Origin: Cladocopium goreaui
Lineage: Eukaryota; Sar; Dinophyceae; Suessiales; Symbiodiniaceae
Length of the DNA: 64,000 nucleotides
Direction of reading: 5' to 3'
NCBI GenBank assembly: GCA_947184155.2
Contig: CAMXCT020005112.1
Span: forward strand, 273,501-337,500
Shown here: piece by piece, positions 18,677-61,400 of the stretch
How the letters are laid out: the number at the start of each line of letters is the position of its first letter
How positions within the stretch are numbered: the first letter of the stretch is position 1
Translations under genes and position numbers: made by a program
The notes under the pieces: generated by a model
The model's input: the letters and a program-made list of their open reading frames with translations, nothing else
Told to the model about the DNA's origin: nothing
The model's database searches: none

Positions 18677-19179
18677 AAATGGCGATTCAATGCAAATAAA
18701 GAACACATGACATATTGGACAACTCAAGGATTTTAGTCTTTTACCATCAAGAATTGGGAGGTAATGGGGTCTAATGGGACTTTAAGAGAACAATAATACA
18801 ATGTGGGGTTCCCAATCGATAGATTTCGGTTTCTTGGAATAACTCCGACATCTGTTGGAATTCGACTTTTTAGTGGGGAGTGGCACTTTGTTTGCATAAA
18901 ATAATCATTATATATATATCATTAGTTAAATATGATTATTATTCTCTATTTATGGGTTGGTTTTCTAAATGTTTGGTTCCAATATCCAGAGGTATATACT
19001 CGTGGAAAGTTCATATACCCCAACAACTCGAAACACCTTGGTTTGGCGGGTCCACATGCCTTCTTGGCTGTTACTTGGAACACTAGGGGATGGAAAAGGA
19101 ATGAAGGGTTGGTATAGGTGGGTGATTATCAAACGCGTCAGAAAACAACAGCAGCATCAGCATCAGCAACAACAACCAC

Positions 19180-19500
19180 AACCACAACCACAACCACCAC
19201 AACCACCACAACAACCACAAACACAAACACAAACACACACAAACACAAACACAACACACACAAAAACAAACGCACACAAACACAAACACACGCACACACA
19301 CAAACACACACACAAACACAACAAACACAAGAAACAAAACAAACACAACAAACACAACAAACACACCAAACACAACAAACACGACAAACACACCAAACAC
19401 AACAAACACAACAAACACAAACACAACAAACACAACAAACACAACAAACACAACAAAGACAACCAGCACAACCAGCACAACCAGCACAACCAGCACAGCC
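19180..19500. repeat. A/C-only microsatellite
   Basis: About 320 bp of CAA/CACAA/ACC words with almost no G or T on the plus strand. The long frames here (up to 178 codons) are artefacts. Confidence 0.95.
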
Positions 19501-19805
19501 CATAATAATTAATAATTACAGGATATTATTGTTATAGGGGTAACTGTGAAATTCAAACCTCTAAATTCAAAGGCTGGAAGTGAAAGCAGGGCTCGACAAG
19601 ATTATTTTACGATTGTACTGGATGTGACCCTTTTGGGGTCTCATGTTAATCATTCAGTGGGATAATGTTTCCATATGTTTCCGATGGATCCATGGTGAAT
19701 TGGATGCTGTTTGGGATGTCAAGGGTCATGAAAGGGGCAACACAAATCCGTAGGGTTTGGATGCGTGGTAAGCAAATCTACTTATATACAGCTCTCCAAA
19801 ACACA

Positions 19806-34371: not shown

Positions 34372-34464
34372 ATGGCATTTCGATGCCTCGAATAACATCA
34401 AGGCCTGCTGCAAACGACCTCCCCGTTCACAGGAGCTGATCGCCAGAAAGTACGTGATGATATC
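34372..34464 (-). CDS. PPR exon, most 3' one recognised
   Basis: Acceptor CCTGAG|GAT. Reads DIITYFLAISSCERGGRLQQ, ALMLFEASKCH. Possible ends are the WQQ-like position (CAGCAG|GCCTTG), a GT donor at 34372 (CCAT|GTGCTT), or straight on to an in-frame stop at 34321-34323, in which case it is the C-terminal exon. Confidence 0.65.
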
Positions 34465-37400
34465 CTCAGGGACCCAGTTTAGCCAGGCAGGGCCTTTCAT
34501 CAATGTGGATTTGTCCAACGAGAAGGGGATTAATTTTTAATAGACGACAACTTAAATGGGTAAAATATAGAATCTGGTTGGTGGTTGAGCCCTACCGCTC
34601 TGAAAAAAATGATGGAGTTCGTCAGTTAAATTCCCAACTGGATGGAAAAATCATCCAGCCATGTTCCAAACCACCAACCAGGAATACATTAGCCGTTAGA
34701 ATTGGTGGTAACTTTGAAAAAAAAGGTGTCCCACGACGGAAAAAAAATGTGAATTCGCAGGTCTATTGTCCCAACATTGGTGCCACCCCAGTTTCTGGTC
34801 CCAACTGTGTGGAAATTCCCAACAAAAAAACATGGTTTCGCAACGAACGAGGGTTTCGTATCATATTTTTGCATCACCAGATTCAAAAATCCAAGTTTGC
34901 CTTTTTTGGTATAGTATACACCATTTCTGGAAATACCCATGGTTAATGAACACAACCACCACAGGAAGGAGTTTGCCAGTGATGAGTTCTTTGTTCAATA
35001 GATCCACATAAAAAATCAAGTCACCAGCCTAGTTACAAACCAACCGAAATGGATCATCATCAATCAACTATAAAGGTAAACTAACATGGCATCATGACTA
35101 TGATTTAATAGCAACAATCAACTATAAATGGGCGAGTTTCTATTTCTATGTTAAATTACCAGAGGGTATATTCCATTAAATCCCATTAGATCCCATTAAA
35201 CCACCATAAATTCCCATGAAACCACCATTCCCATTAGATCCGTTTCTATGTTAAATTCCCAGAGGGTATCGATCCGAGTTTTTGGGTGGGCTTCCCTTCC
35301 CTTAGGATCCCAAGTCTCTGGTTGGATGTGGCAGCAATTCATCTCTTCAAACAACTGGAGCGCCTGTGTTTCGCCGTTGGCCACATGTGCCATGGTCAAG
35401 TTAGCTGGGATTAGTGGATGTCAATCACTGGTTGGTGGTGCAATCAATAACCATCTTGAAAAATATGATTGGTTAATGATGGTTAATGGTGGTTAATGAT
35501 GGTTAATGATGGTTAATAATAATCTGGTTGGTGGTGCAATAACCATCTTGGAAACTATTAGTCAATGGGAAGGATGACATCCCATATATGAAATGGAATT
35601 CATAAAAGTCATGTTTGAAACCACCAAGCAGTAATGGTTTATGGTCCTCTTATCATAAGCAGGAATTCCTGACTTAACGGATATGTTGAACCCTGACCTT
35701 GGATTGATGACAGACACCCTACTATGGGCATATAATCCAACTGTTCACTGTGCCACACATATTTGGCATTGATCTCCAATGTATGGATGTAATCAAACTG
35801 ATGTGACAGTAATCTTATGTATCCTCCTCCACGCATGGCCAAAATATATATAACCATTGTCCTTGCAAAACCACTTCACCTCAACCTCTGATGTACCAGT
35901 GACAACCGATATATCTGGGTAAATTACAATAATTCACAAACCTGAATTAAGGTACTAACCATGATTCCAGGGCTCGGTTGCAGTGAGGTCGTTATAATTT
36001 GCCCAGATATATGATTGATATATGTACACAAGGCCAATGTTCAGATTCTGCATTTCTTTTGGCAGGTTAGGTTCATACATCCTTATGAACAGCATTTTTT
36101 TCTGGGTGCATCTGATGGGATATACTCCAATAAATCCATGGGGATACTAGTGATGAATCAATGGATTGTGGGTACCCTACTTGGTGGCTCATCCCACGGC
36201 TCGTAAGTGGGTTATAACCCCAGTTATAAATGGGATAAGTAGGGTTAATCCACTTATCACTGGGGTTATAACCCACTTACTAAGTGGGATGAGCCACCAA
36301 GTACTTTCAGACCTTATAGCCCTGAACACAACCGGGTATTTCTTATATATGTCATTGCTTTTGGCTAACGTCTTTACCAGGGAGATGAAGTGATGATGGC
36401 CCCAAGCATCATCTATGGCATCTATGGTGACGGTCCTAATTGATCATCATTTATCGCTATGATTTTCATGTATATAATATATATATATATAATTATATAT
36501 ATATACATATATATACATATATATATAATATACATACATATATTAAATATATATACATATATATGTACCATAGCTACTTCATGCCCTTTTGAATGCCATT
36601 TCGATGCACAGAAAGATGCCGTTCTCCGCACGGCCCAGGAATTTCTCCGCGCCTGCGGCCAATGCTTCAGCCGTTGGCAGGAGGTGATCGCACTGTTGAA
36701 GCTGATCTGATCTCCTCAGCTCCCCACCTCCCTGGGGCCCAACAAAAAGGGAGTTGATGGTAGGATTTGATGATTTGGGTGTCAAGCATGGTTGATGTGA
36801 ACATCAAATTTCAGCAACATAGAATACACAGATAGGAATTTAAGGCAACAATAGGGATTGATACAGTAGCTTGGATTGATATGAATTAGGTACGTGGTTT
36901 ACACCTACTGTGAAAAAATATGTTGAGGGTGAGGTGTTGGTACCCCTAACATACCCCAACCATAGACCATAGGGCAAACACCGTTTAACTCGCAGCGATT
37001 TCTCAGCTACTAGGTGTTTGTAATATTTTATAAGTATTTCCTACGGTTGGACAATCTGAGATACCTCAAAGATAGGTAAGCTCACCCAGAACAGCGGGAG
37101 TGTGGTTCGACACCAGCTTTGGGGACACACACCGAAAAAGTTGATAGCTATATAGTCATTTGTTGGTAAGGGCCGCTTGCCTACATGTGCCTACCATACT
37201 TGAAGGTGATGCTCTGAAACCATAGTAAGGATGCTTGCGCCAAATCCCAGTGCCTTGGGGACAAAGCTGAGCTAACGGCCAAAACTAAGGATGACTGTGC
37301 TAGTATTGTTTCTAATACAAAATGACTATCAAAGTATATCAAAGTACTGAATTCCGAAAGAGACGACATAATATTGGCTGTCGATTTGGGCAAAATCCAT

Positions 37401-40400
37401 CAAAATCCTTAGTATTTTGCCGGGGCAACCATGATTGGCAGCGGCCATAGTGTCAACAAAGGCCATTGGCATTACTGGAAATTTTCCGTGCCATTCGGTC
37501 TTGAGACTCTGGCGATTCGTATTGTCTCTACTACAGCAGGAAGGGCCCTCCTAGTTTCAGGTCAGTTTATAACCCCCATCTAAACTCATCCACCATAAGT
37601 CCAATCGTTGACCTACACTAGCCGACTTAAACTTACCCATCATAATTCGCCATCAATCCCAACATTTGTTGATTACCATCTGGTTATGACTAACAGTTTG
37701 CCATGGAGAATCACCATTTTTAATAGGTAAACCATCTATAAATGGGCCATTTTCCATGGCTATGTTAAATTACCAGAGGGTAAGTCCGCCTTTCCAAAAA
37801 CTCATTTCCTCTCTCGAGTAAGGGTCGTCGCACGGAGGACTGCACCATCAGCGACATCAGATGCAGAGCTTCTTGCCAGCGGCCGGCCTTTTCCTAGGAG
37901 TCAGCTTGAAGGGGAGAGACACCACAACAATATCAACATAGATCAACATAATATCATCATAACACTTCCCAACAAAAATCGAAACTAGAAACGTGTTTCC
38001 AAGAAGTTATAGATGTTGTTTAATACATATTTCCAGGCTTCCCACTCTTATATCAATTTTGGGGTTGCCATGATATCACGGGCATAAGAACTGATGATGT
38101 GATATGTTTATAGATATATAGGACAGTGAATCAACAGCCAGACAAGAGATTATCAACAAATAGTAGAAACACCACTTTTACTAGGTAACTAAACACAACA
38201 TGTTTGTTGCTTAAAACAATAGAATCATTGTAGTTCTACTCACAAATTTCCCCATGTGTTCTTGCCGAAGTTCCTTCAATCCGCATCTTACTCATGAAAA
38301 ACATATTAGTTCCTTAGGCAAAACCCATAATAGATCCCTAAACTTCCTCAAGTTCCTTACAATGTGGGGCCCCCGGAATATAAGTTGGTTTATAAACCCC
38401 ATTAACTATAGCTATACGTATCATAAACTATAGTTATTGAAGTGAGTAGTGCACCAACTTAGCTATCAAAAGTCAGATATACATAAATCATCATCAATCT
38501 CATTAAATCCCTTTTGTTCTTGGTTTAGTCACCATTTTCCTATGGTTTTGCTTAGCTATCGTAAACTTAGCCATCATAAATCTCACTAAGTCCATCTTTG
38601 TTTTTTGCTTTATAGAAATCACCATTTTCCTTTGGAGTTTCCTTACTTTCGTTTGGGGTCCCCACCAAACCCCTCTATGAATTAGCCAACCAATGGGAAA
38701 AGGACATCTATGGACATGGGACATATTATAATTAGTGGAAGATCCCATTTACAATCTTATGATCTTCCATTGGATATTGAATAATCCTATTCATACCTGG
38801 GTGGTGGTTTGAACCCCTCTCAAAAATATGAAAGTCAGTTGGGGTTATTATTCCCAATATTTGGAAAAAATCAAAATGTTCCAACCCACCAACCAGAATA
38901 TATATATATTAATATTGCCAATGGATCTCAATTCTTGGATTCAACATTGTAAGTGTCAACCAAACTCCCCCATGTCATCCTTTGTTTCCTCACCGAGACG
39001 CGCATGAACTGATCAACGCGTTGAAACTGAAGTCGTTGGAACACGAAACCGTCAGCTGAGAGAAGAGCTGTAAGGCCTGGTGGCATGCAATGGTCACCCA
39101 CCACCAACCATGTTAGATGTATGTTATAGTAAACAAAGATATATTAGGTATATATAATAATAATAAAATATTAATAATAATAATAAAATAATAATAGATA
39201 TATATGTATAAAATATGTAATTATCGTATTCAATTGAATATCAGTTGAAATAGAAGGACATTACTCTGAAAAATGGGAAACCATTCATGTATTAGTCATC
39301 CTGAGGTTAATAGAATATGGATTAAAACCAAAAAAAACACTACCAAAATGGGAATATTGAAAATTCCCCCCATGTCTCCACAGTTTCATGAACAAAAAAA
39401 AAACACTGTTGGGGGATTGGCCCCATGTCGTTTTACTTGATGTTAGCATTGATGCTTGGCATCATTCCAGTGATGCCGTAGTGAGGCCGTCATGATTAAA
39501 CTCATATTTGGTGATCGTTATATATATCCTGTCTGACAAACATTCTGATAGCTTCTGTGACATTCTATCTGACGTTTTATTTGGCATTCTTTCTGACAGT
39601 CTATCTGGAATTCTATCTGACATTCTATCTGGCATTCTTACGTTTGCTGTCTATGGTCTTATTCCCCTATTCATGGGAATATCCGCCATTTTTCACCACT
39701 ATTCTCCCATGAAATCCCTTTTTCATGGCCACATACTAGAGTTTTCGCATTGCTTAGTTTGAACTACTCATTGGTTAAATCTCAATATGTTGATGGTTGA
39801 ATCAAATCACATCAAATCCCCTAAATTGGTCGGTACAAAATCCCATTTGACTCCCATCATTAGTAATATCCATTAATTTATCCAGACCAGACAACAATTT
39901 CTCATATATACCATATATGGTTATTTAACATAGCCATGGAAAATGGCCCATTTATGTTCTTTGATAAAATTACCTATTAATAGCATGGTGGATTCTCCAG
40001 TTCGCTACGTGAATAATCACCAGAGAGTTATCGTTGTTTCAAATCACACATCCCATAGAAACCCCTCGATTTCAAATGCAAACATCGTCTGAGTTCGTGA
40101 AATCCAATGCAAACATCCCATTGAATCAGTTCCACCTCCAAAATCAGCTTGTAACCACCATCATAGCAAATATATGGGATATCATATATCCGCCGACCCC
40201 GGCTGCGCAAGGGGGAGCGCGTTAGGGAATAAGACAGCAGCACCCAGCCAGTAGCCAGCAGTCAATATCCGCCGACCCCGGCAGACGCAAGGGGGAGCGT
40301 GCCAGGGAATAATACTTTTGACTCTTGTTTCGGACTACTACTACTACTACTACTACTACTACTGCCATGGTGTTTTCCCATCCGGCAGGTGCCTTTTGAA

Positions 40401-43400
40401 CAGAAGGAGTCACAGGAGCAGGAGCAGCAGCAGCAGGAGGAAATAGAAGGTGTTTGACAAGACGGTTATCATCACAAAGGCAATTCTTTTTTTTTCTAGG
40501 ATTTCAGAAGGGACGTTAGGCACTTTTTGGGCTCGATTTTGGGGCGTTTTGGGCACGAAATTAGGTGGCGTTTCAGCGTTTCAAGTGGTGGCCATGAGCA
40601 GCAGCAGCAACAGGAGGGTTCTATGTCTCATTACACAAACAGTGGTATAAACATTGGTCGAAAACTATAAACATTGGTATATTATTGTGATTGATTTTGC
40701 GTCATGTTCGGCACGAAATTAGGTGTCTGGCTGCTGGTTTCTTACTTTATTAGAGGCAGTAGCAGCAATCAAAATTAGAGATCAAATTGGACAAAATTAG
40801 ATTTCTATTGGACAAAGTTGGATTTCTAGTAGGATTTCAGAAGGGACGTTTCGGCCCCCGAAAACCTATTCTTGTGATTGATTTTGCGTCATGTTCGGCA
40901 GGAAATTAGGTGGTGTTTTGCTGTTTCGGCTGTGTTTTAAAAAAGGTGTCTGGCTGCTGGTTTCTTGCTTTATTATAGGCAGCAGCAGCAGTCAAAATTA
41001 GAGATCAAAATTGGATAAAATTGGATTTCTAGTAGGAGTTCAGAAGGGACGTTTCGGCCCCCGAAAACCTAATATTGTGATTGATTTTCCGTCATGTTCG
41101 GCACGAAATTGGGTGGTGTTTTGCTGTTTCGGCTGTGTTTTAAAAAAGGTGTCTGGCTGCTGGTTTCTTGCTTTATTAGAGGTAGCAGCAGCAATCAAAA
41201 TTAGCGATCAATCAAATTTGACTAAAATTAGATTTCTATTGGACAAAATTGGATTTCTAGTAGGATTTCAGAAGGGACGTTTCGGCCCCCGAAAACCTAT
41301 TATTGTGATTGATTTTGCGTTATGTTCGGCACGAAATTAGGTGGTGTTTTGCTGTTTCGGCTGTGTTTTACAAAAGGTGTCTGGCTGCTGGTTTCTTGCT
41401 TTATTATAGGTAGCAGCAGCAGTCAAAATTAGAGATCAAAATTGGACAAAATTGGATTTCTAGTAGGATTTCAGAAGGGACGTTTCGGCCCCCGAAAACT
41501 TAATATTGTGATTGATTTTCCGTCATGTTCGGCACGAAATTGGGTGGTGTTTTGCTGTTTCGGCTGTGTTTTAAAAAAGGTGTCTGGCTGCTGGTTTCTC
41601 GCTTTATTAGAGGCAGCAGCAGCAATCAAAATTAGAGATCAAATTTGACTAAAATTAGATTTCTATTGGACAAAATTGGATTTCTAGTAGGATTTCAGAA
41701 GGGACGTTTCGGCCCCCGAAAACCTATTATTGTGATTGATTTTGCGTTATGTTCGTCACGAAATTAGGTGGTGTTTTGCTGTTTCGGCTGTGTTTTAAAA
41801 AAGGTGTCTGGCTGCTGGTTTCTTGCTTTATTATAGGTAGCAGCAGCAGTCAAAATTAGAGATCAAAATTGGACAAAATTGGATTTCTAGTAGGATTTCA
41901 GAAGGGACGTTTCGGCCCCCGAAAACTTAATATTGTGATTGATTTTCCGTCATGTTCGGCACGAAATTGGGTGGTGTTTTGCTGTTTCGGCTGTGTTTTA
42001 AAAAAGGTGTCTGGCTGCTGGTTTCTCGCTTTATTAGAGGCAGCAGCAGCAATCAAAATTAGAGATCAAATTTGATTAAAATTAGAGATTTCTATTGGAC
42101 AAAATTGGATTTCTAGTAGGAGTTCAGAAGGGACGTTTCGGCCCCCGAAAACCTAATATTGTGATTGATTTTCCGTCATGTTCGGCACGAAATTGGGTGG
42201 TGTTTTGCTGTTTCGGCTGTGTTTTAAAAAAGGTGTCTGGCTGCTGGTTTCTTGCTTTATTAGAGGCAGCAGCAGCAATCAAAATTAGAGATCAATCAAA
42301 TTTGACTAAAATTAGATTTCTATTGGACAAAATTGGATTTCTAGTAGGATTTCAGAAGGGACGTTTCGGCCCCCGAAAACCTATTATTGTGATTGATTTT
42401 GCGTTATGTTCGGCACGAAATTAGGTGGTGTTTTGCTGTTTCGGCTGTGTTTTACAAAAGGTGTCTGGCTGCTGGTTTCTTGCTTTATTATAGGTAGCAG
42501 CAGCAGTCAAAATTAGAGATCAAAATTGGACAAAATTGGATTCTAGTAGGATTTCAGAAGGGACGTTTCGGCCCCCGAAAACTTAATATTGTGATTGATT
42601 TTCCGTCATGTTCGGCACGAAATTGGGTGGTGTTTTGCTGTTTCGGCTGTGTTTTAAAAAAGGTGTCTGGCTGCTGGTTTCTCGCTTTATTAGAGGCAAC
42701 AGCAGCAACAAACAGTGGTATAAACATTGGTCGAAAACTATAAACATTGGTATATTATTGTGATTGATTTTGCGTCATGTTCGGCACGAAATTAGGTGTC
42801 TGGCTGCTGGTTTCTTACTTTATTAGAGGCAGTAGCAGCAATCAAAATTAGAGATCAAATTGGACAAAATTAGATTTCTATTGGACAAAGTTGGATTTCT
42901 AGTAGGATTTCAGAAGGGACGTTTCGGTCCCCGAAAACCTATTCTTGTGATTGATTTTGCGTCATGTTCGGCAGGAAATTAGGTGGTGTTTTGCTGTTTC
43001 GGCTGTGTTTTAAAAAAGGTGTCTGGCTGCTGGTTTCTTGCTTTATTATAGGCAGCAGCAGCAGTCAAAATTAGAGATCAAATTGGATAAAATTGGATTT
43101 CTAGTAGGAGTTCAGAAGGGACGTTTCGGCCCCCGAAAACCTAATATTGTGATTGATTTTCCGTCATGTTCGGCACGAAATTGGGTGGTGTTTTGCTGTT
43201 TCGGCTGTGTTTTAAAAAAGGTGTCTGGCTGCTGGTTTCTTGCTTTATTAGAGGTAGCAGCAGCAATCAAAATTAGCGATCAATCAAATTTGACTAAAAT
43301 TAGATTTCTATTGGACAAAATTGGATTTCTAGTAGGATTTCAGAAGGGACGTTTCGGCCCCCGAAAACCTATTATTGTGATTGATTTTGCGTTATGTTCG

Positions 43401-46400
43401 GCACGAAATTAGGTGGTGTTTTGCTGTTTCGGTTGTGTTTTACAAAAGGTGTCTGGCTGCTGGTTTCTTGCTTGTGATAATGCATTTGCCAAAGTTTCTC
43501 GTCACACAGCTTGCCTGTTTCACCAGCAATCCCCGATTCTTTACCGGGGTCGGCGGCAGGGGCGGCAGCCCTTAAATAATTTCCAGTATAATACGGCAGG
43601 TTTCTGGTAAATATGGCTATCATAGCAACTGGTCGGTGGTTGAGCCCTACTCCTCTGAAAAATGATGGAGTTCGTCAGTTGGGATGATGAAATTCCCAAT
43701 ATTTGGAAAAAATCATCCAAATGTTCCAAACCACCAACCAGTTTAGTTCCTATTCATCTCAAGTATTCCTCGAAGATGTAAGCTATTCAAAACATGGATC
43801 CAGGAATCCCCGCAAATGTGGGATGAGCCACTTCTTTATTGTGAAATCCCATGATAATCCCATGAAACCATTCTTTGTCCATTTTTTGGTCTTTACAATG
43901 TGGCGCCCCCACTTATAAGTTGGGTTATAAACCCCATGAATAATTACTATAGTTATGAATATCATAAACCATATTATTGAAGTTATAAACCAACTTAGCT
44001 ATCTATCTACAGTTTTGGCAATTTATTAGTTTTAACTTGTTATTTCTATGGGATTATACATTTCATACATGGGGTTTTTGTTAGTACTTGTAACTGGTAT
44101 TTCGGGCCATAACTGTAGTCAATGTGGGTAACGCAATAGGATCCACCATCCCCAAGTTTACCATTTTTATGGGTGGTATAAACTATCAATGTATATGGCT
44201 GGTTTATGACATTCTTTAACGAACATTACCATGAAAACCATAAAATCACCCCCATGAATACTAGTTCGTTAAATCTACCATAAACCATAGTTCATTCAGC
44301 CACTTATAAGATTTATAAGGCAACGGTTCACGCTATCCAACTTAAGCCACTTATAAGGCACTTAAGCAACTGAACGCGACCACCGTTGCGGGGGCCCCAT
44401 CCAATGTCCACGCCATGCGCCTGCTGCCACTGCCCCATCTTCTCGCAGGAGCTGATGGCAGCGCTGAAACTCACCACATCGGGCTGCAACTTCATCGTTG
44501 GCATCAGCGCAAAGACATACCTCCGGTCGAATCCCTGGGAAATTGACCTGGATTTCACTGGGATTTTCTTGGCAAATACCGGGCAAATACCGGGAGAATG
44601 GTGGTTTTTTAACTGATTTTAACTGGGAAACACATGGAAAAACGTGAATTTCCTTAGGAAAATTGGGAACGTCACTGGGAAACATGGTGAATTTGGGAAA
44701 ATCTTGGGAAAATGATGGATTTCACTGGACACAATTGGGATTTCACTGGATTTCACTGGCAAACATGGTGAATTGAACTGGAACAGATGTTGGATCTCAA
44801 ACAAAAATAATAACTGAGAACAGATGCGCATTGAACCATGGTTTACCCAACTTAATTAAACCAGGACACATTGGGATTTGCTCTTAGCAAACATGGGGAT
44901 TTACGCGTGGAGGACGTCGCTTTGAGGCCACCAGATGGTTGGAGGCAGCGTCAAAACCCATGGAGAAAAGTGGTGGGGATGGGTCAAAACCCTATCCCCC
45001 TGTAGTTCACATCAAAATAGCTGGGATTTATGGATGTTCATCCCCCTAAAAATGGTATCTATAGGTATTGATCCATAGCCAAGTAACTTGTTGGTACTTG
45101 TGGGCTGAGTTTCCCCTATGTTTTTGTATTGGTTAAGCCCCGGGAATCGGGAACTTAGCTTCCCCAAGGTTTTCTGTTCCCTGTCTTTCGCCATAGGAGC
45201 CCATTGTATACCGGGTTGCCCAAAGAGAACCGGCCGGCATTGAACAACAAACACGAGACTCTACGTACCCAGCACATATTATAGAAACACGGCAATTCTT
45301 GTGACTCATCAAAATGGCCATTTCATGGCTTCACCATGGCTAGCCCTGTGAATGTCACCGCTAGCCTTTAAAAATATTTCAGGGCTATGCAATACCTCCA
45401 GTGGATTGGTATACCCTCTGGTAATGACTAACATAGCGAACTGGAAAATCACCATGCTATTAATGGGAAAATCCACTATTTCTATGGGCAATTTTCAATA
45501 GCTATGTTAAATTACCAGAGGGTACCTGAAATGGCCAGTGGTTGATGCTTGATCCAATGCTGCGAATCGCCAAGAAACAAGGCATGTTCCCATCGTAGCG
45601 CCTTTTCGCAAGAACTGATGGCCGCATTGAAACCTCAGCCGTGCGGCCCGCCGTGCAAATCACGGGTTGATCATCCCAAACTCCTCATGAAAACTCGCAA
45701 GATCAAGATAGATATTCCCTCTGGTAAACAAACAGTTTGCTATTGAAAATGGTGATTTATAGTGGATTTACCCATTGAAAATGGTGATGTTCCATAGTTT
45801 TTTGTAAACGTTTACCAGAGGGTACCCAATTTTTGGGGCAGATCAAATTGCATGAAATTGCTAGCCACATCCAAAGATGCAGTGACGCCTGTTGAATCAT
45901 ACCAGGAAGAAACAAGCAAACTTGATGGCCATGTGTACTGCTTTTAGACGCAAATCTACAATTATATTAACATTTGGCAGATATCCCAACTCTAGTTCCT
46001 TTCATCAGCTATTAACCTGGCCTTTCAAACTACGTGGTTTGCAAACTCAATTCGTAGCTCCAATCGGCTCCTCGTTATTTTTTGGGAAATGTCGATCACC
46101 GCTCCAAACTGCTCCCAGCATTCACCACTGGATAGCTAAAAAAACACGCGAGCAGTGTTCAAAACCTTGTTTGTTGATGATCGGGGATTGTAGTAACCAA
46201 TGTATGTCACAATCCATTTTTAGAAAATCCTTATCAACCAACAATTTGATATCATCAATTCACTGGTAATTACCCTCTGGTAAACTAACATAACTATGGA
46301 AAACCACCATTTTAAATAGGTAAATCAACTATAAATCGTCATTTTCAATAGCAAACACTGTTTATTTACCAGAGGGTATCTATCAATATTCGAATTCTCC

Positions 46401-49400: not shown

Positions 49401-52400
49401 TGATCCCTGCTCAAAGGTTAGGTCTATATGAAGTCAGTTGGGGTTACTATTATTACTATTCCCAATACATGGAAAAATAAAAGCTGTTCCAAACCACCAA
49501 CCAGTAACATACTGTGGATGAAAGAAATCCTGCACCATCAAAAGGATGGTTCAGAGCCTATAAATACTGGGATGTTGATCACATATCAACTGGTGCAGGA
49601 CATTTTGTTTCATCAACAGTATCACGGGTTGGTGGTATACCTACCCCTCTGAAAAATATGACTTCGTCAGTTGGGAGTATGAAATTCCCAACTGGATGGA
49701 ACAAAATTCATTCTTGTTCCAAACCACCAATCAAGTATTGTACCATAGATTATTATAGATTATTAACCATTATTATAAACCAGTTATGTTATTATAATCA
49801 TGTACCAAACCACCCACCAAATCATGTAGTCAGTGCCCATCCAGTAGTTTTGCCCCTTTTTGCGGGTTCAAACCTGCCACCCTGTAGCCTGTGGCCTGTG
49901 GCCAAGGGGCATTCGCTGGGACCTGTGCCAAAGACATCTGCTCAAACAATTCCAGGGCCTTGGCACGGCTTTGTTTGACTGATTGACATTGGGATATATA
50001 TATATATTCATTTTTGAAATGATGATGTAATTTGAGAATCAGAATTGGATTCACACAAATTGGAATTTAATATGTGGGTTTGTGGAGACCATATCAGAAT
50101 GATTTGGGTTTGATTTCTGGGCTCTTCTAATATGTTATAAAATCAAACACGTGGATTTCGCGAGGGGATTCAACCAACATTTAGTGAAGACTTACTCTCT
50201 GGTAATTTAACATAGCTATGGAAAATCACCATTATTATATAATGGGTAGTCATCAACTATTTCTATGGGTCATTTTCTATGTCGCAAACTGTTAGTCATT
50301 ACCAGAGGGTAGACCACCATTAATTCACTATTACCCATTAATAACCCCCATTAATCACCATTAATCACCATTTTCCACTGGTGAAATCAAATTTAGTGAA
50401 GACGTAGAAAACAGCATGTCAATGTTGGATTGACTCAGCGAACATGCAGATTCGATTATTTTTTTTTGATAAAAAAACAACTGCCATTTTGTTGTCTCAA
50501 ATCCACCAGGCATCACATGGATCTACCAGGTTTAACCTGTTCAATCAACAAAGAAATTGGATATATATATATATTTATATTATATTATTATATATATAAT
50601 TATATATAATTATTTATACACATTATATATACCTGATATATCCTGATATCACCAGCAAGAAAGTTGCTTGTAGACATGAACATACAAAAGTAACAAACGT
50701 AAATTGTACCTGGAACAATGCTGTAGCCCGCAAAAAGGGGAAATTCAACAACAGTGGATCATCATTTACCTATCATGTTGGTCAAAAGATGGAGAGAAAA
50801 CCATCGGATAAAACAACCGGAGGGAACAGGACATCTCGATATATAAATTGAAATACTTCACCAACCTGAACACTTTGACGAGCCACATTCGCTCTCGTGG
50901 CCTCTCCCCGGCAGAAAAAAAGGGTGACAAATTATTTCTCAATTGTCTGTATAAACTATATCTGGTTGGTGGTATACCTACCCCTCTGACAAATATGAAA
51001 GTCAGTTGCGATCATTATTCCCAATAATTATATGGAAAGTCAAAAAAATCATGTTCCAAACCACCAACCAGATATGACAGTTCACTAACCTGGACTCGGC
51101 CATTTTGGAATAGTCACCCTTCCTAACCATCCCAGTGACTTCCCGACAGGGCGTTGCTTTAATAAATCGCCAAGCTGCAAGCTGCAATTGCTCACCCTTC
51201 TCACAGGCACTGATAGCAGCACTATAACTGTAGACGTTGGGATGCACCTGGTGTCATCCATCCCCAGTCGAAAGTCACAACGTGAAAAGCAAGTCCTGTT
51301 TTCGATGCCGTGCCACATATCCACATGAAGGCATAATTTTCACGATAAGGCTGCCTATCGGAGTTCAAACTTGCCAACGATACGTTAACGCGTGGCATGT
51401 TTCTTCACTGCAAAAATAGTTATGGACGATCATCCGAGAGGGATGGAACGTTCTGAAAGATATAAAGATACCGTTCACCACTCAAATGGATATCAACCCA
51501 GGATTCATAAATCCCCAATAGAGCCCGGCGCCCACTTGGAATATCCTTCACTAATCAAAGTCCCACCAAGCTAAGGCCACATCATGGAGACGCAGTAGCA
51601 ATATTCAACAGTCTTTTTGGGGATTTCAACATTTAAATCATGTTAAATCCCCAGTTTCTAATGATCAAATCAAGTCTCTGAATCTGTCCCCACACAATTC
51701 CCCATGTTTGGGCTTTGTCTGAAATAGGGTCCAGCAAATCACCACTTTCCCTATGAACAGAACTGTTCTGGGGGTATACACCATTTTCAGACACACCAGC
51801 ATCATATTGTAGTTGGTTATGTATCCTATAAAAAAAAATCCCATTCAACTCGATGATTTCCCCAAAACACATCTCAGAAGCCCATAGAATCCCAGTTTTT
51901 ATCCACACAGAATCCCATTCTATCCCCGATTTTTTGCTGCTTTTTTTTAAAACCCTGTATTCGAGTTTCTCTGAACATCGGCGTTTTTTTTCGCGCACCT
52001 CGCGTCCCGGCATGTCCCGCAGCAAACTCAGCGCACGCTGCCACTGCTCGCCCTTCTGACAGGCGCTGATCGTGGCGCTGTAGCTGATGACGTTGGGTGA
52101 AAGGTCCTTGGTGGGAAGGGGGACCCAGGATAGGTAAGATGGACAACCAAAAATGACTGTTCATAACTAAACATATTGTTAGTTTTGATCAACAAACATG
52201 AGAAGTTATATTCATCTCAACACTTAGCTAAGATGTTAAAAGAACTAGTCTAATCAACATTTTATGATGAATATATCTAGAGCCGCATGGGATTTGTTCA
52301 ACCGACTCATGACTGGGGCCACTTTGTTGCTATGGGACAACTGGGGTCATCCAAGCATCACCAGACTGGGTCATCCATGCTGCACGAGGAAAAAGGACTG

Positions 52401-55400
52401 TGACTCAATGGATTGCTTCAAAATCTGATAAATCTGTAAGAAACCATAGTTTTCACCCTTAGGCACCTTAGGTATAGGATGATACCAGGTCCCATCATCC
52501 ACTTCAGCCATTGACCAGTAGAAAATCTGAAAAACATCAGAGCCACTTTTCTCTCAGTAAAGGCGCGCGATAAAGCGCTACGGTACAGGGACCCAATATT
52601 TGAGTGACTGATTTCAAATACATTCATCAAATACAATGTTATATTACCCTCTGGTTATTTAACATAGCCATGGAAAATGGTTCATTTATAGATGGTTTAT
52701 ATACCCATTAAAAATGGTGATTTTCCATGGCTATGTTAAATAACCAAAGGGTATCTACCCAGCCTAAAGTCTCGGATGAAAGAAATCATTGCTATCATGG
52801 CCAAAGTGTCTGCAGCACGCATGGCATCGAAGAGGAACAAGGCGCATGGCCACTGTTCGCCCTTCTCACAGGAACTGATTGCTGCGTTGTAGCTGACAAC
52901 TTCACGCTGAACGCTTGCCTCATTTTGGAGCATGACATTTGGAGCACAACTAATTGGATTGAAGAGGATTTGAATGGAGAAACATGGGATTCATGGGAAA
53001 ATCATGGAAAAAATGTCAGAGAACAAACATCGATGCTGATTGGGGATCTGTCATAATACTATATACACAAAACTACCGGCCCCGGGACCTTGCTTGACAT
53101 GTTGGGAAAGCAAACAGGTCCCGTATTGGATTAGATCGCAATCCCTTCAAACCAGTTACTGTGGTATAACATGGTATAACCAAAAAAACATCAAAAAACA
53201 CCAAAACACAACATGCTTGGGCATGTTTGGTCTAAGTACCAATGTATACTTGTTGCTGAAAATCGCCGCTGTTGATGTTCACCAGAAAAAAAAAACCACC
53301 AGGAATCAAACCTCTGAGTTGCTGTGGCCATCTGTTTGCCCAACTATTTCCAACTGTTCTTGAAGTCTCTAGTCTTTTACCATCACCCTATTCTCACTGG
53401 ATACCCCGTGTTTTTTTCCCTTTAACCTCCCCATTGTTCCAAGGATCTCTAGCCATCTGCTGGAAAATCTGCAGCGCCTGCTGCCATTCCCCGGCCTTTT
53501 CGCAGGCGCTGATGGTGGCGTTGAAGCTGATGCTGTTGCCCTCCACTCTCGACCGCTGTAGCGTCTGAAACAACCCCAGCGCCTGGCGCCAAAAATCTAC
53601 TTGGTAGAAGTGGGATCAGCAAATGTTACACATGGGATCATCATCTTAGGGTAACAAAAGGATACAAATGGGATAATGGATGGTTAATGGGATCATCAAT
53701 CCTAATATCTTAGGTAGAGTTGACAGTCAAAACTCTTACAAATTGATTGAAACCACTAATTAGTTGATGTCAAGCCGCAGCAAATGAACAAAAAATCATC
53801 AAGTTTGGCTCAGAGAAGGGACGGAGCGGAAATGTACCAGAGAAGTGACAAGCAAAATTGGATTTGGATTGTAATTCACCAGACAAGCGGAAATGGTGAT
53901 ATCATGCTAGGCTGAGGCCCCAGGCCCAGGAAATGAATGGAAGTGACATGAATGACTTGCACAACTGGGGATACAATATGATCAAACATGATCAAACAAG
54001 ATCCAACAATGAGTTATTAGTCACGCCTGGAGAAGTTCACCAAACTTGATGAACCACACATTTACCCTCTGGTAGACGTTTACAGTTTGCTATGAAAAAA
54101 TCAATTGTTTGTTTTTGTTTTATTAATCAACTATTTCAATGGGCTATTTTCAATAGCTATGTTAGTCATTACCAGAGGGTACATGGACATAGAAGCAGCA
54201 ACCATGACTGCAAAAGAGAAAACCGTCACAAGAACAAACTGGGTAACTGGACTTGGCAAGAAGACAACGGGGAAGGTGAAGTGGCTTTCAAATCGTGAAC
54301 TGCAACTTGGAGTTCCCGACTCTAAAGAACAAATGAACAAGTCAGTCTAAGTACAATAGAGCATACATGTGTATATATATATAATATGTATATACATATA
54401 TATATATGTAATATGTATAATATATATATATAAAAATAATACATATGTAATGTACATATATATATATATATATCATGCAATATCCCATATTTCAAGCAAC
54501 ACTTCCCTCTGGCTCACCCAGCGCCTGCTGCCATTGTCCTGTCTTCTCACAGGCACTGATCGCAGCGCTGTAGCCTTGTAATGTGAGGAGCCAGCCACGG
54601 CTCATAACGCGACGTTTTCACCGGGAAAACCACGGGGTAACACTCGGCTGGACACCGAACAGAAGCTACTGAACAGAAGATAACAGCACACTAATTGGAT
54701 TCAAAGTATCAGAGAAGTAGTCATACAAATATCGCAAAAATTGGGATAGGAGAAACAAAAGATGATTGTCACGAACTGCTGAAACATTCGAAAACCCAAG
54801 GGTTTATCAAGAATTTCTCTCTTATGACTGGCATTTTGAAGTACACAATGTATCCAACCCATGTTCGAACGGTCAATACTGTCAAATTTGTTATCATTAC
54901 TCTCCGGTAAACATACAAAAAAACATGGAAAAACACAATTCTTGATGGGTAATTCCACTATTTCTATGGCCATGATCAATAGCTTTTTGTATGTTTACCA
55001 GAGGGTAGTTAATAATATGGGATCCATTGTGTGGATGTACAATTCCATCACCGAATTTCCCATGGTTGATCGTTGAATCTGGATAAATTAGAAGCTTTTA
55101 ACGGTCACAGAAAAACTGGGGATGGACAAACCCTTGATCTTCCTCACATATGGGTGAGTCCCTCTCACAAGTTTCAAAGTTTCATGGGCAAATGTTTACT
55201 TGCCAAATCCTCATGAAGCTACATTTGCCCGAATCAAACTGATTGAACCAAAATCATCTTTTTAGATCTCTTCACTGACATGGGTATGGATCAATAAGGG
55301 GAATGAACATCCATTTACCAGCTATTTTGATGTTCACCAGGGGTACCAGGTTTTGACACACTGCCACATTTCTGCCCGGTTTTCCCTGTCTTCTTCGGGT

Positions 55401-58400
55401 TCCCAGTCACTGAAGATGTTCGCTCGGATGGTCTGGGAAGGCATGGCTGCGAGAAGGATCAGGGCATCTTGCCATCGATTGCCCTTCCTAACATTTTTTT
55501 TGAGGCTCTCACGAAGGAACAAAAAACCAAACATGTCCAATACCATCCAGTAAACCATGGGGTTTGTTATTCCGAAATAACAATAGCCATGGATTACCAT
55601 CCAAACATGTCCAATACAGCTATGGAAATCCATGGGTTTGTGCTGGAGGATCCCATCTAAAACCAAAGGTTTTTAGTGGTGTCAGTGTTTTACGACATTT
55701 ATTGACCAAACATAGGGATATCATATCTAAATGGAACCATAATAAATGTTTGGTGTTTACAACCATTTATTGTTTACAACATATCATATCTAATCAACAA
55801 CCAAATAATTTGAACATTTCCCTGAGTGGATTTGCCCAAATGCTTTATGATAATACCTAAACGTCCTAAACAAACAGAATCGAACAGCTTCCAGTCAGGG
55901 TTCTTTCAGTTGGATTATAAAAGTCGTCTGGTGCCGGGGGGGTGGAACCCCTAGAAAAAAAAAATGAAATGCAGGGGCCTAAGGACAAAATGCCAATAAA
56001 ATGAGAGGGCATAAGGTACTGTAAGATAGGAAAACCCAAGCAAAATACAATGGACAGGTACAAAAAAAATATGACGTCAGGCCCCCTCCACCTGGCAACT
56101 GTTGGACCTCGGGCTCCGGCATTTTCTTTTGGGTTGATCTTGGTTAGTCTTGTTTCCTTATCTGATTGGTTTTAATAATCTTTGAAGGAAAACCACCCAA
56201 AATGGCAAGACCTAACCTCCAACATACAAATAAATATAATTGGTTCCAATATGTTCCAATTCTGACATCTGGATGGTTTCTAGAAAACATACAAATAAAA
56301 TCAAAGAAATATACTGTAAATAAATTGAACAAATCTCATTGGCTGCTGTGAGCTGCCCGTGTGTCTTTTGTTGGCCAAGGGAGGCAATAGAAAATGAGGG
56401 GGGCCAACCCATTTTCGAATTTTCCATTTTCACAGCACGCACTCCTGCTAGCATCAATTTGGATCGACAACAACTGCTGTTTCAGTTCATATGCTACAAA
56501 ATGATCAGACCGTTCACAGCTGTGCATCTTTGCTATCATGCTATCTCTGTCAGTTAACTTGATGGGTTGGGCACCTCAAAAAATAAAATGCACCCACAAA
56601 ATAAAATGCTGGAGTCTGACCCCATAGTATTTTCAGATGTGCTTTATTTGTTTATTTTTTAAGGGGCTCCTGCCCCCTCATTCTCTTTAGTTACACCGAA
56701 CGGCTGTGATTATATGTTTCTATCTTTTTGGGCGTTGCGAACGTTAATCAAACGTGGACATCAAATGGCTATGGATCAATACCTATTAATACCATTTTTA
56801 GGGGGATGGACATCCATTTACCAGCTACACCCATACGCCAAAGTCCTTGCAATGTTTGCGTTTGACAGCTATTCCCAATCAAAACGCTCGCCACGACCCC
56901 TGTCCCGGCACAGACCTTGCAAAACCCCTTTCCCCATTGGAAACGCTAGCTTTAACAAGCCTTGACCAAACTATCATGGTTCTATTCGTTTTTGACCGAA
57001 TCCCATCGGAACGCCGGTTTCCAACGGGCCTTTTTTCGTGGGTACTGTTGACGCCCACAAACAAAAACGCGAAGCAGGCCCTTTTCCTAGTTTGTATACT
57101 GCAGGATGGGTTCTGATAAAGGAAAAAACGAGGTCCAAAACGAGGTACGGAAAAAGCCCCGCATCTACACACATGGACTTTGGCCCGCAAGCCGCAAACC
57201 TGCCCTTCCTTGGACCACTGGTAGCGAAACAATGACAATTTGCAGAATCCCAGCACACCGCCATGGCAGTGTAGAGATGATAATCCCAGCGTTGTGTAGA
57301 AGTACCCGGAAACAGCAACAGCAGCAGCCGTCGAACCAGCAGCCGCAGCAACAGCAAGACGCCAGTAGCTGCAGAACCCAACAGCAACCATCCCAAACAC
57401 AATGAGAACGCAACTAGCAAGATTAAAGCACTATGCTAATAGTAAAACAACGCCCTACCCCAAACACAACCTAAACGCCGCTTCGCCACTTTAGGTCTAC
57501 ATGAGATAGTAAAACAGCAACCTACCCTAAACTCTAAACACAAGCTAAACGCCGCATCGCCACGACTTCCACAAAAGCCTTCCCCCAAGCTAATTTCAAG
57601 ATTTTTGGGATTTCGCCACGACTTGGGCAGTTGGGAGTATTTTGATGTGAACTACAGGGGTACAAGGTTTTGACACACTGCCAAATGACTTGGCAGCTGC
57701 CAAGCTTCTCACATGCAGTGATGGCCGCACTGTATGTGAACACGTTCTGTTGGGCTTTCGCAGCTGGAATGCGGTGGAACAAACCTGGCCGGTGAAAAAT
57801 CCCGGCAAAGCCTCTGGGATTTTGGTGGCTAATGGTGAATTAATGGTGGTTAATAGTGAATTAATGGTGGTTAATGGAGGTTCATGGAGTTTATTAATGG
57901 CTAATAGTGAATTAATGGTGGTTTACCCTCTGGTAAAGACTAACAGTTCGCTATTGAAGCCATGGCCCATTGAAATAGTTGATTTACCTCTCAAAAGATA
58001 ACGATTTTTCCAGTTCGCAAGCTGTTAGTCAACCAGAGGCTAAATTCGGATTAGTTTCAAGATGCTTCAAGGACTTGGGGGGTCATGTTCCACTGAAAAT
58101 AAGTTGGTATATTATTAGTCCACGTGGTCAATCTTTGGTCCGCAGAACATGGTCATCTTTTGGTCTTTTGGGTAGCAACAAACTACCCAGGATTACTTTT
58201 ACCCGTCGAATGTTGGTATATGTCCCTCGTAACCACATGACCACATATCCAATCCAAAATCCAATGATTTCATCTATATAATTACTGTATCCCATTGTAA
58301 AAATTCTCAATCATTGGGTTTATAATTGTCAATTTCCCAATAGTGTGGTAAATTATACTATTTCACTCACCTGAAATGTTGGGCCATGAATGGGGATGAT

Positions 58401-61400
58401 TTCCCTTATTAGCCATGATTCCAGGTTTCTGTCGCAGTGCGGTCGTGATCAAATTTACCTACATTATCTGGTTGGTGGTTTCAACCCTTCTGAAAAATGA
58501 TGGAGTTCGTCAGTTGGGATGATTTTTCATTCCCAACTGAATGGAAAGTCATAATCCATTCATGTTCCAAACCACCAACCAATCACTCATATTCCATTAC
58601 CAGAGGGTTAATCACCATTAAATCACCATTAATATCCCTATTAAATTTATTAAATCATCATTAAATCATGTTCCAAACCACCAACCAGTTGCTATAATTG
58701 TCCCTTCATACCTCGTTAGCGCCAAGAAAGCCAAGAAACTCAGGGCCGCCTGCCACATCTTTGCAGCGGCACAGCAGGACATGCCCAGGTTGTAATCTGG
58801 TGGATCGAGTTGGAAGATCTGGTCATGCCTGGGTCCAAAGTGAAAAAAAATCGTCGTTTTTTTGGCCTGAACCATCGGTTAATGATGGTTAATAATGGTT
58901 AATGATGGTTAATGATGGTCAACGATAGTTAATGATGGTTATATGATAGTCATATTGGATGTGAAATTATTGGTTAATGATGGTTAATGATGGTTAATGA
59001 TAGTTATATGTGTGGCCAATTCTTGGTGATCCATTAAGCATCATATCATCCATAAGCATCAATAATTTCTCAGTAATAATCATGGTGAGGGGGATCACTG
59101 GTATTAATCTTTTAAAGGTACCATAAGATGATAATAAACATGGTGATCTACGTACTCAATGGTGTTAAAGATGGTGATCACTGGTACTTTTAAAACCATG
59201 GTGATTCTACCAGCAGTGATGTTTCTGTGACATACATGGAGATCTAATAGAGCACACATGCTGATTTGAAATGATTTACCCTCTGGTAAATGTTTACATA
59301 ACTATGGAAAATCACAATTTTCAATGGGTAAATCAACTAGTTCCATGGCAATTTTTGGCTGTGTTAGTCATTACCAGAGGGTAACCAGCACACATGGTGA
59401 TCAGCAGGCGCCTAGGGGTCACCCTGTTTATCATCAAAGAGTGTAGGATGCAACGTTTTAACGTTAACAATGATAAGGATCCACCACATTTTTCTACAAT
59501 CTAACTCCCTTGTTATTTACATTGATGGTCTGGTTGGTGGTGCAATAACCATCTTGAAAAATATGAAAGTCAATGGGAAGGATTCTCCCATATGTTATGG
59601 AAAAAACATGTTTGAAACCACCAAACAGTGGTTAAATCCTACTAAAATATACTAAAATCAAATTTCGACAGTTCAATCCCCTCGTTCCTGTCAACTCCCC
59701 GATGAAACACCATTGTTACAATCTGTTTCGTGGTGGCTCCTGATTATAACTTGGTTGATAAACCCATCTGACCATGGTTATGATCACCAGGACCATGACC
59801 ATCATTGACCCTAAATTAGTCCAGCTTTAAGCCATCTGAGCTAAATATGGTGAGCATATGTTAGAATAATCCATTCCGTTGCTTATTTATATCTATAAAA
59901 TGATATATATATATATGTATATTATATATATATATTATTTATATATATAGAAGCAAATATAAATATTATAAATAATATATCCATGTAATTCCATGTACAT
60001 CCCACTAAATTAGTGGTTTTAAGTTTAAATCACCCCTAACGACCTGGGGTAGCCACCAGCGGCTGGTGTCCCTGTCGGTGGCCAAGTGGCTGAATGATCT
60101 CTAGAGACCTGAAGAGCAGGCCTCAAAGCGACGACACGGGCATGAAGAAACTATGGCTTGAGAATGGCTCTTAAGAACTTTTAGTAACGGTTGCTTAGTG
60201 GTTATCAATATTGATTATCATTACACTATTATCATGAACTATATAAATAAGATTGGTTCTTAATATTGGTTCGTGACAATAGTAATGATAATAGCAATGA
60301 TACTGGTTCCAATAAGAATAATGATATTGGTTCCAATAGTAATGATAATGGTTAGTAATAAATAATAGTAATAATAAGCCATGGTTAAGTTGGTTATATT
60401 AATGGCTATATTAATGTGGTTATAATCTGGTTGGTTATATAAATAGCTCAATATACGCATAATAATACGACTTCATAATGGTAGTGGCAATTATCCCATT
60501 ATGGAATAGGTGGGATATTATAATATCGGATGAATAATTAATTCCGATTGAATAGTGGTTCATGATAATAAAAACCAATAAGAATAATGATCATTGTAAT
60601 GGTAATAATATATATGTATATGAAAATCAATAGACTGGTTCATAGGAATTAATAAAACGAATAATAGTAATAAGTCTAGCAATAATAATAACATATGATA
60701 ATCAATCATGGATAATAATGGCTAGTCATGATGGATAATCACCCTATTAATGGATATAAATTGAGGTTTTCATGGGGAAATCAGCTGTAAATCGAATCCT
60801 TTGCATTGCCATGTTTGATTACCAGAGGGTAAATCCAAATCATTACCAGATCTTCGGGCTGGGGAACCACAAAAAAATCTGTGTGTGAACAAATTCCAGA
60901 AAACAATGTCAGGATCCCATCTTAAGTTCCACTTCTAGATAAATGATATACATATATATATATATTATCCCATATATGTTAATCCCATCTAGATAGTCTA
61001 CATATATATATATATCTATATATATATAGCTATATATATACTCCAGATCTCATACAATTATATATATACACATTTACATATATTTCCCAGAAACCTGCCA
61101 ACAAAAATACTGGAAAGTAGTAGCACTGTATTTTAGCTTTCTGTTGGTCTGTGGATTTCACAAACGCTTTGGATCAATCAGCAGACCACCTCTCGAAATC
61201 AGCTTGTAACCAGCCCCATCATAGCAAATATATCCCATAGGATCCATGTATGGTATATATGCTAACATTTGGGGTATATGGATGGTAAATGTTACCATAT
61301 ATAACATACATGGATCCTATGGGTATGGGATATTATATATATCTATTTCTATATAATTGCCAGTATAATATGTCAGGTTTCTGGGAAATATTCTGGGAAA

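What the first reader, a model, noticed from the sequence alone, without database searches (positions are those of the whole stretch)
34372..58828. A PPR gene cut into 44-135-nt exons that can be rebuilt from repeat periodicity alone
Nineteen minus-strand fragments join in phase so that nearly every repeat has exactly 15 residues from the helix hinge F/L to the Ser of S-Y/F-N. Examples: the 47.9- and 46.8-kb exons join as V-E-P-N-Q-V-S-F-N; the 45.6- and 44.5-kb exons as W-E-H-A-L-Y-V-F-A-L-M. Several exons (44-62 nt) are too short for ordinary gene finders. The fit of phase and spacing together is hard to get by chance.
Basis: partly seen in the sequence, partly recalled or inferred. Interest (0 to 1): 0.85.

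Follow-up and report, generated by a model that had tools for sequence, protein, structure and literature searches.

The report
Intron-shredded dinoflagellate PPR gene
A dinoflagellate gene for an RNA-binding repeat protein is cut into about twenty very small exons; the gene looks real and its layout is normal for this group, but its introns look like old mobile-element insertions that carry an unusual signal just inside the intron.

Summary
A splice search with the donor left free (only AG required at intron ends) and a repeat profile taken from other genes of this genome finds nineteen minus-strand exons (44-135 nt): 683 bits against at most 21.9 in 12 dinucleotide shuffles and 18.9 on the other strand. 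The 476-residue product is a P-type PPR protein (PPR_2 E 4.3e-77); 11 of 12 counted repeat spacings are 35 residues. The genome is a dinoflagellate's (172 exact spliced-leader copies, control 0); many small exons are ordinary there (PMC9412976, PMC4083563). Less ordinary are the introns. All 18 start with G (7 GC, 6 GA, 5 GT), all 18 are followed by G, and their first four bases tend to repeat those of the next exon, like a 4-bp target-site duplication. CTTGG then sits at +5 to +9: at least 4 of 5 letters in 11 of 18 introns, and in 10 of 17 filtered (11 of 26 unfiltered) dynein introns; background 1.6%. Three U1 copies read keep the canonical 5' end. I read the introns as fossil introners; that origin, expression, and a splicing role of CTTGG are inferred.

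The parts
62001..62112 (-). tentative N-terminal exon (..SPAALRRELKGLVEEKRA), donor |GATCCTTGG
   Evidence: the profile hit that led to it is at chance level (4.4 bits; higher chance hits are in the same list); support comes from AG|G and the donor motif seen in the sequence and from the in-frame join
60091..60121 (-). tentative 31-nt exon (SLLFRSLEIIQ), donor |GCCACTTGG
   Evidence: best of 40 phase-compatible candidates by N-terminal profile, 40.6 bits (next 38.5 and 38.3) against 28.6 for joining without it; the candidates were pre-selected with the donor motif, so this is no independent support for the motif
58740..58828 (-). exon 1 of the finding, entry repeat of the PPR array
   Evidence: (58740-58794), extended to AG|G at 58828
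57709..57784 (-). exon
55411..55487 (-). exon
54525..54574 (-). exon
53448..53582 (-). exon, longest (135 nt)
52811..52918 (-). exon
51999..52106 (-). exon
51179..51247 (-). exon
49911..49958 (-). exon
48185..48241 (-). exon
47907..47950 (-). exon, shortest of the nineteen (44 nt)
46799..46914 (-). exon
45579..45633 (-). exon
44421..44520 (-). exon
39002..39076 (-). exon with the one 33-residue spacing
37827..37893 (-). exon
36653..36714 (-). exon
35319..35363 (-). exon
34384..34464 (-). last exon found; its 3' limit is uncertain
39077..44420 (-). longest intron (5344 nt), holds a tandem array

Best explanation
A nuclear gene of a Symbiodiniaceae-like dinoflagellate encodes a P-type pentatricopeptide-repeat protein (13 counted repeats plus an entry repeat), which by family most likely binds organelle RNA about one base per repeat. 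Its coding sequence was interrupted many times by small DNA elements that duplicated a 4-bp target beginning with G. Each intron now consists of the upstream copy of that target (GNNN), then the remains of the element starting with CTTGG, up to an AG; the exon resumes with the downstream copy. Splicing removes one target copy plus the element, so the reading frame is restored exactly. Shown: the exon chain, the protein family, the G start, AG|G, the tendency of the first four bases to be repeated, and CTTGG at +5. Inferred: origin from introners, that the gene is expressed and functional, and that CTTGG helps to mark the 5' splice site.
For: Exon chain 683 bits against 21.9 at most in 12 shuffles. 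PPR_2 E 4.3e-77, PPR E 1.7e-63; designer PPRs E 3.6e-61 and PPR10 E 1.1e-57 in the PDB. The 476-codon chain needs no stop or frameshift (the search has no frameshift state and charges 60 bits for a stop). 18 of 18 introns start with G and 18 of 18 are followed by G though neither was required; donors GC 7, GA 6, GT 5. Intron bases +2, +3, +4 equal the next exon's in 14, 8 and 8 of 18 (permutation P 0.0004, 0.06, 0.045) and are at background from +5; summed common prefix 49 against a permutation mean of 27.3, never reached in 20000 permutations. CTTGG (4 of 5 letters or better) at +5 in 11 of 18 PPR and 10 of 17 filtered dynein introns, 1.6% of 26404 background positions. CCA at -5..-3 is matched more often than at 271 random AG|G sites (mean 1.09 against 0.63 of 3). 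172 exact dinoflagellate spliced-leader copies, control 0. The same architecture (4-bp TSD, 5' splice site taken from the TSD, 3' splice site and TIRs carried by the element) is described for Symbiodinium microadriaticum introners (PMC9860276, passages).
Against: No transcript was available. The introns show no end-to-end similarity to one another; what they share are inner MITE-like repeats, so no introner family is demonstrated. The 3' arm expected of an inverted repeat (CCAAG) is incomplete: C, C, A at -5, -4, -3 in 16, 17 and 5 of 35 introns. In dynein introns the 4-base repeat is faint (+1: 17 of 17 against 15.1, P 0.06; +2: 9 of 17, P 0.04; +3 and +4 not significant). Pairs of CTTGG..CCAAG with an identical 4-base flank in 315 kb: 16 rows over both strands, that is 8 distinct pairs, four of them one tandem series, where about 9 rows are expected; five control end pairs gave 2 to 20 rows against 1.0 to 23.1 expected, so no clear excess of young copies. 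The remaining excess of CTTGG relative to the 4-base repeat is about what neutral decay alone would give (my estimate), so its use in splicing is not proven.
Confidence: 0.83

Rival explanations
1. The exon chain is a chance fit of repeat periodicity to noncoding DNA.
For: A cheap intron cost does create spurious tiny exons: 91 exons (971 bits) on the minus and 86 (160 bits) on the plus strand of 104 kb at cost 8.
Against: At a higher cost the chain keeps 683 bits while 12 shuffles give at most 21.9 and the other strand 18.9; splice letters that the search did not require are uniform.
Confidence: 0.01
2. It is a real but dead copy (pseudogene) of a PPR gene.
For: No expression evidence; the genome holds many relatives in single long open frames; one spacing is 2 residues short.
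Against: The chain needs no stop or frameshift over 476 codons and has AG|G and a G donor at all 18 introns, although the introns have taken up many repeats.
Confidence: 0.1
3. The introns arose by another route; GNNN and CTTGG are only the splice-site preference of this lineage.
For: CTTGG also marks dynein introns whose 4-base repeat is weak; the 3' arm of the supposed inverted repeat is incomplete; introns share no family sequence; five PPR introns sit at the same place of the repeat unit, before the last Ala (four directly, one after allowing for the short repeat), which a preference for AG|GC sites could give.
Against: The intron-specific match to the following exon is lost when introns are permuted, which a fixed consensus does not explain.
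Confidence: 0.25
4. Splicing is guided by pairing of each intron's own two ends, as proposed for Amoebophrya introners (PMC7789003) and, from recall, for Euglena nonconventional introns.
For: CTTGG and CC(A)AG could pair in principle.
Against: No excess pairing of an intron's own ends over permuted ends (in-register P 0.34 for 18 PPR and 0.25 for 31 introns; six other offsets 0.16 to 0.80); own best stems 4.55 against 4.52.
Confidence: 0.04

Closest known systems
P-class PPR proteins of dinoflagellates
   Same: 35-residue tandem repeats, Pfam PPR_2/PPR, large family in the same genome; about 620 PPR genes are reported in Symbiodinium minutum (PMC4079212, passages)
   Different: The 20 best matches given as loci (some share a gene) lie in open frames of 454-823 codons without stops; this one is in about twenty pieces
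Symbiodiniaceae spliceosomal introns
   Same: GT/GC/GA donors, AG|G acceptors, many small exons (PMC4083563, section 25; PMC9412976, Table 1 passage)
   Different: The legend in PMC4083563 speaks of weak 5' splice-site signals; here an extra signal CTTGG is seen at +5..+9
Introners of Symbiodinium microadriaticum (Gozashti et al. 2022)
   Same: 4-bp duplication, 5' splice site taken from it, 3' splice site at the element's end (PMC9860276, legend of Fig. 2)
   Different: No similar family copies among the introns and only a partial 3' inverted-repeat arm here; the published element's letters were not visible to me
Amoebophrya introner elements (Farhat et al. 2021)
   Same: Direct repeats of 3-5 nt at intron ends (PMC7789003, passages)
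   Different: There splice dinucleotides are variable, hairpin arms are 8-20 nt and U1 was not detected (PMC7789003, passages and section 10); here G..AG is fixed, no end pairing is seen and a canonical U1 exists

Membership tests
P-class PPR protein | tandem degenerate 35-residue repeats | tested here: met
   11 of 12 spacings are 35; PPR_2 E 4.3e-77 with 12 stretches
P-class PPR protein | no editing or cleavage domain at the C terminus (E, DYW, SMR) | tested here: inconclusive
   none among the 15 families listed for the 476 residues, but the 3' end of the gene is not settled
P-class PPR protein | binds RNA, organelle targeting | not testable with these tools
   needs the full N terminus and binding assays
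Dinoflagellate spliceosomal intron | GT, GC or GA at the start, AG followed by G | tested here: met
   18 of 18 PPR introns; among 26 unfiltered dynein introns 20 start with G and 21 are followed by G
Introner (TSD/TIR type) | intron start repeats the start of the next exon (target-site duplication) | tested here: met
   PPR: prefix sum 49 against 27.3, 0 of 20000 permutations; dynein weak
Introner (TSD/TIR type) | terminal inverted repeats | tested here: inconclusive
   5' CTTGG present; 3' C, C, A in 16, 17 and 5 of 35 introns
Introner (TSD/TIR type) | many similar copies of the whole intron in the genome | tested here: not met
   no end-to-end similarity among the 18 introns; no clear excess of young copies in 315 kb. 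A whole-genome copy search was not done, so copies outside this gene are untested
Euglena-like nonconventional intron | the two intron ends pair (feature recalled) | tested here: not met
   P 0.34 (18 PPR introns) and 0.25 (31 introns)

The most novel reading that the evidence does not exclude
In this dinoflagellate the 5' splice site is set mainly from inside the intron: a mobile-element-derived CTTGG at +5..+9 fixes cleavage four bases upstream, at any G of the duplicated target, while U1 keeps the canonical ACUUACCUG that fits GTAAGT and not these donors. Element insertion at a G in a coding sequence would then make a working intron at once, which would explain both the intron wealth and the so-called weak donors.
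Probability: 0.3. Interest if true: 0.75.

Novelty: new member of a known kind. Interest (0 to 1): 0.42.

Why it matters
It shows that protein repeat periodicity can serve as an internal ruler for splice junctions where no RNA data are at hand, and the junctions found this way carry a signature of how the introns may have arisen. The CTTGG observation offers a concrete, testable answer to how dinoflagellates recognise donors that lack GTAAGT.

Tried and rejected
A cheap-intron run of the splice search gave 91 exons on the minus strand, many of them spurious tiny ones; it was replaced by a costlier intron. Three other short-frame PPR regions (55 kb, both strands) gave chains of 1-3 exons at 29-67 bits and no usable intron set. 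A first filter for dynein introns (flanking exons of at least 40 nt) kept 13 of 26 and showed CTTGG in 5 of 13; a second filter (flanking exon similarity) kept 17 of 26 with 10 of 17, one of which starts CC and not G; unfiltered it is 11 of 26, with 20 of 26 starting with G and 21 of 26 followed by G. The second filter was chosen after seeing the first, so all three are given. Pairing of intron ends: none. Duplex of U1 with the 35 donors: -6.0 kcal/mol against -4.65 at random intronic G sites (z -3.2) and -14.2 for a canonical site; U5 loop -5.63 against -4.43 (z -2.8); U6 no difference: small effects that I do not interpret. Spliced-leader relics in the loci held by then and in 104 kb around the gene: the only partial match was in L046, which is not one of the long-frame PPR loci; flanks of those loci are short.
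Full report
Check of the observation. Simple scans place the PPR fragments between 58.8 and 34.4 kb, the strong ones all on the minus strand; the seed profile used there contained letters from the window, so it served only as a first look. The real test used a 35-residue profile from 164 units of 13 long open frames elsewhere in the genome, no requirement on the donor, and only AG at intron ends. It returns nineteen exons, 58794 to 34384, with 683 bits on the 24.6-kb gene segment; 12 dinucleotide shuffles reach 16.4-21.9 and the reverse strand 18.9. Exons are 44-135 nt (mean 75), introns 234-5344 nt (mean 1277).

What it encodes. The spliced 476 residues match PPR_2 (E 4.3e-77), PPR (1.7e-63) and PPR_3 (1.5e-44) in Pfam, and designer PPRs and PPR10 in the PDB. 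Successive S/T-[YF] sites are 35 residues apart in 11 of 12 cases and 33 in one. The first exon probably continues to 58828, where its residues follow the conserved start of sister proteins (24.7 bits, top hit in 104 kb). A chance-level profile hit (4.4 bits) drew attention to a possible exon at 62001-62112 that ends at |GATCCTTGG; between the two, a 31-nt exon at 60091-60121 is the best of 40 phase-compatible candidates and gives an N-terminal stretch of the same length as in a sister protein (my comparison). That last search used the donor motif and is not independent evidence for it; both exons are tentative. By the two-residue PPR code (positions 5 and 35, recalled), the repeats listed read roughly A A N Y A A A U U N U U; this is a prediction only.

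What organism. The exact dinoflagellate spliced leader occurs 172 times, its reversed control 0 times. The genome holds 1.17 Gb in 6202 contigs. A published Cladocopium goreaui assembly has 17.2 exons per gene, exons of 120 bp, introns of 839 bp, donors GT 36.6, GC 43.6, GA 19.8% and AGG acceptors 96.1% (PMC9412976, Table 1 passage). Symbiodinium minutum averages 19.6 exons per gene and uses GC and GA beside GT, with AG frequently followed by G (PMC4083563, section 25 read). The gene therefore follows the norm of its group. The species is not identified; Symbiodiniaceae is an inference from size and donors.

The introns. All 18 start with G (GC 7, GA 6, GT 5) and all 18 are followed by G; the last exon base is not fixed (A 7, G 5, C 3, T 3). 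Positions +2, +3 and +4 of an intron equal those of the following exon in 14, 8 and 8 of 18 cases (permutation means 6.1, 4.6, 4.4; P 0.0004, 0.06, 0.045), and the match is at background from +5; the summed common prefix is 49 against 27.3, never reached in 20000 permutations. From +5 to +9 the letters C T T G G occur in 13, 14, 10, 13 and 12 of 18 introns; 11 of 18 have at least four of the five. To see whether this is peculiar to one gene, dynein AAA_6 genes on four contigs were spliced against two uninterrupted dynein frames of the same genome. CTTGG at +5 is found in 11 of all 26 inferred introns, 10 of 17 after filtering by exon similarity, 5 of 13 after a length filter; at the 15 other offsets looked at, at most 3 of 26; background 1.6% of 26404 intronic positions. 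In the dynein introns the 4-base repeat is faint.

Interpretation. A 4-base repeat that begins with G, followed at once by a constant five-base end, is the anatomy given for Symbiodinium microadriaticum introners: 4-bp TSDs, TIRs, 3' splice site carried, 5' splice site taken from the TSD (PMC9860276, passages). I take the introns as old insertions of that kind. The limits: no intron resembles another end to end, the 3' arm is incomplete, and no clear excess of young copies was seen in 315 kb. If the intron's CTTGG decays alone while the duplicated bases decay in two copies, the remaining excess of CTTGG (about 0.59 in PPR and 0.47 in dynein introns, taking 1.2 of 5 letters as background, my choice) predicts about 0.35 and 0.22 for the repeat, close to the 0.38 and 0.14 that I compute; so selection on CTTGG is not needed, though not excluded.

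The splicing machinery. U1 has 22 matches, 14 over the family's cut-off. In the loci read, L057 and L058 carry SRP, U1, U2, U5, U4 and U6 in one unit; the shorter L059 shows SRP, U1 and a cut U6. The three U1 copies read start with AAACUUACCUGG, the canonical end, and the L058 copies of U6 and U5 have ACAGAGA and GCCUUUUAC. The 35 donors match GTAAGT at only 1 to 4 of 6 places. A cluster of all five snRNAs is already known in Symbiodinium minutum (PMC4083563, section 25). How a canonical U1 handles these donors is open; the figure legend there speaks of weak 5' splice-site signals. Search of the held papers for CTTGG with dinoflagellate and intron lists two papers, by title on PCR identification of Gymnodiniaceae and on fungal rDNA primers (listing only); Roy et al. 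2023, the most relevant one, is not held, so I cannot say that the motif is unpublished.

Verdict. The gene model is well supported; the layout is ordinary for dinoflagellates; the fossil-introner signature and CTTGG at +5 are the parts worth a specialist's time.

Noticed in passing
L057, L058, L059: A unit carries SRP, U1, U2, U5, U4 and U6 RNA genes (L057, L058 complete; L059 shorter); U1 recurs about every 2.8 kb on contig C4692 and every 2.7-4.8 kb on C5084. An snRNA cluster is known in Symbiodinium minutum (PMC4083563).
   Followed up: partly
window 52645-52753 and 48016-48125, and other introns: MITE-like repeat of about 110 bp with inverted ends TACCCTCTGGTAA..TTACCAGAGGGTA; 12 copies in 11 of the 18 introns were read.
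   Followed up: partly
introns I0, I7, I8, I13, I14, I17 of the gene: A second repeat of about 112 bp with ends CTGGTTGGTGGTTTGGAAC..ACCACCAACCAG, 7 copies in 6 introns read.
   Followed up: partly
window 57209-57708: The second intron starts GAAGCTTGG; 500 nt further in stands CCAAG followed by GAAGGGCA, the first eight letters of the next exon (55487). It may be a younger insertion border or chance.
   Followed up: partly
window 40635-43473: Tandem array of similar units inside the longest intron, where the GC skew is raised.
   Followed up: no
window 18969-19537: Long low-complexity stretch open in several frames on both strands.
   Followed up: no
G000, e.g. C2557, C4079, C1624, C298: Many PPR matches in long open frames, several per contig, beside which this intron-rich gene stands out (lists capped at the best candidates).
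   Followed up: partly
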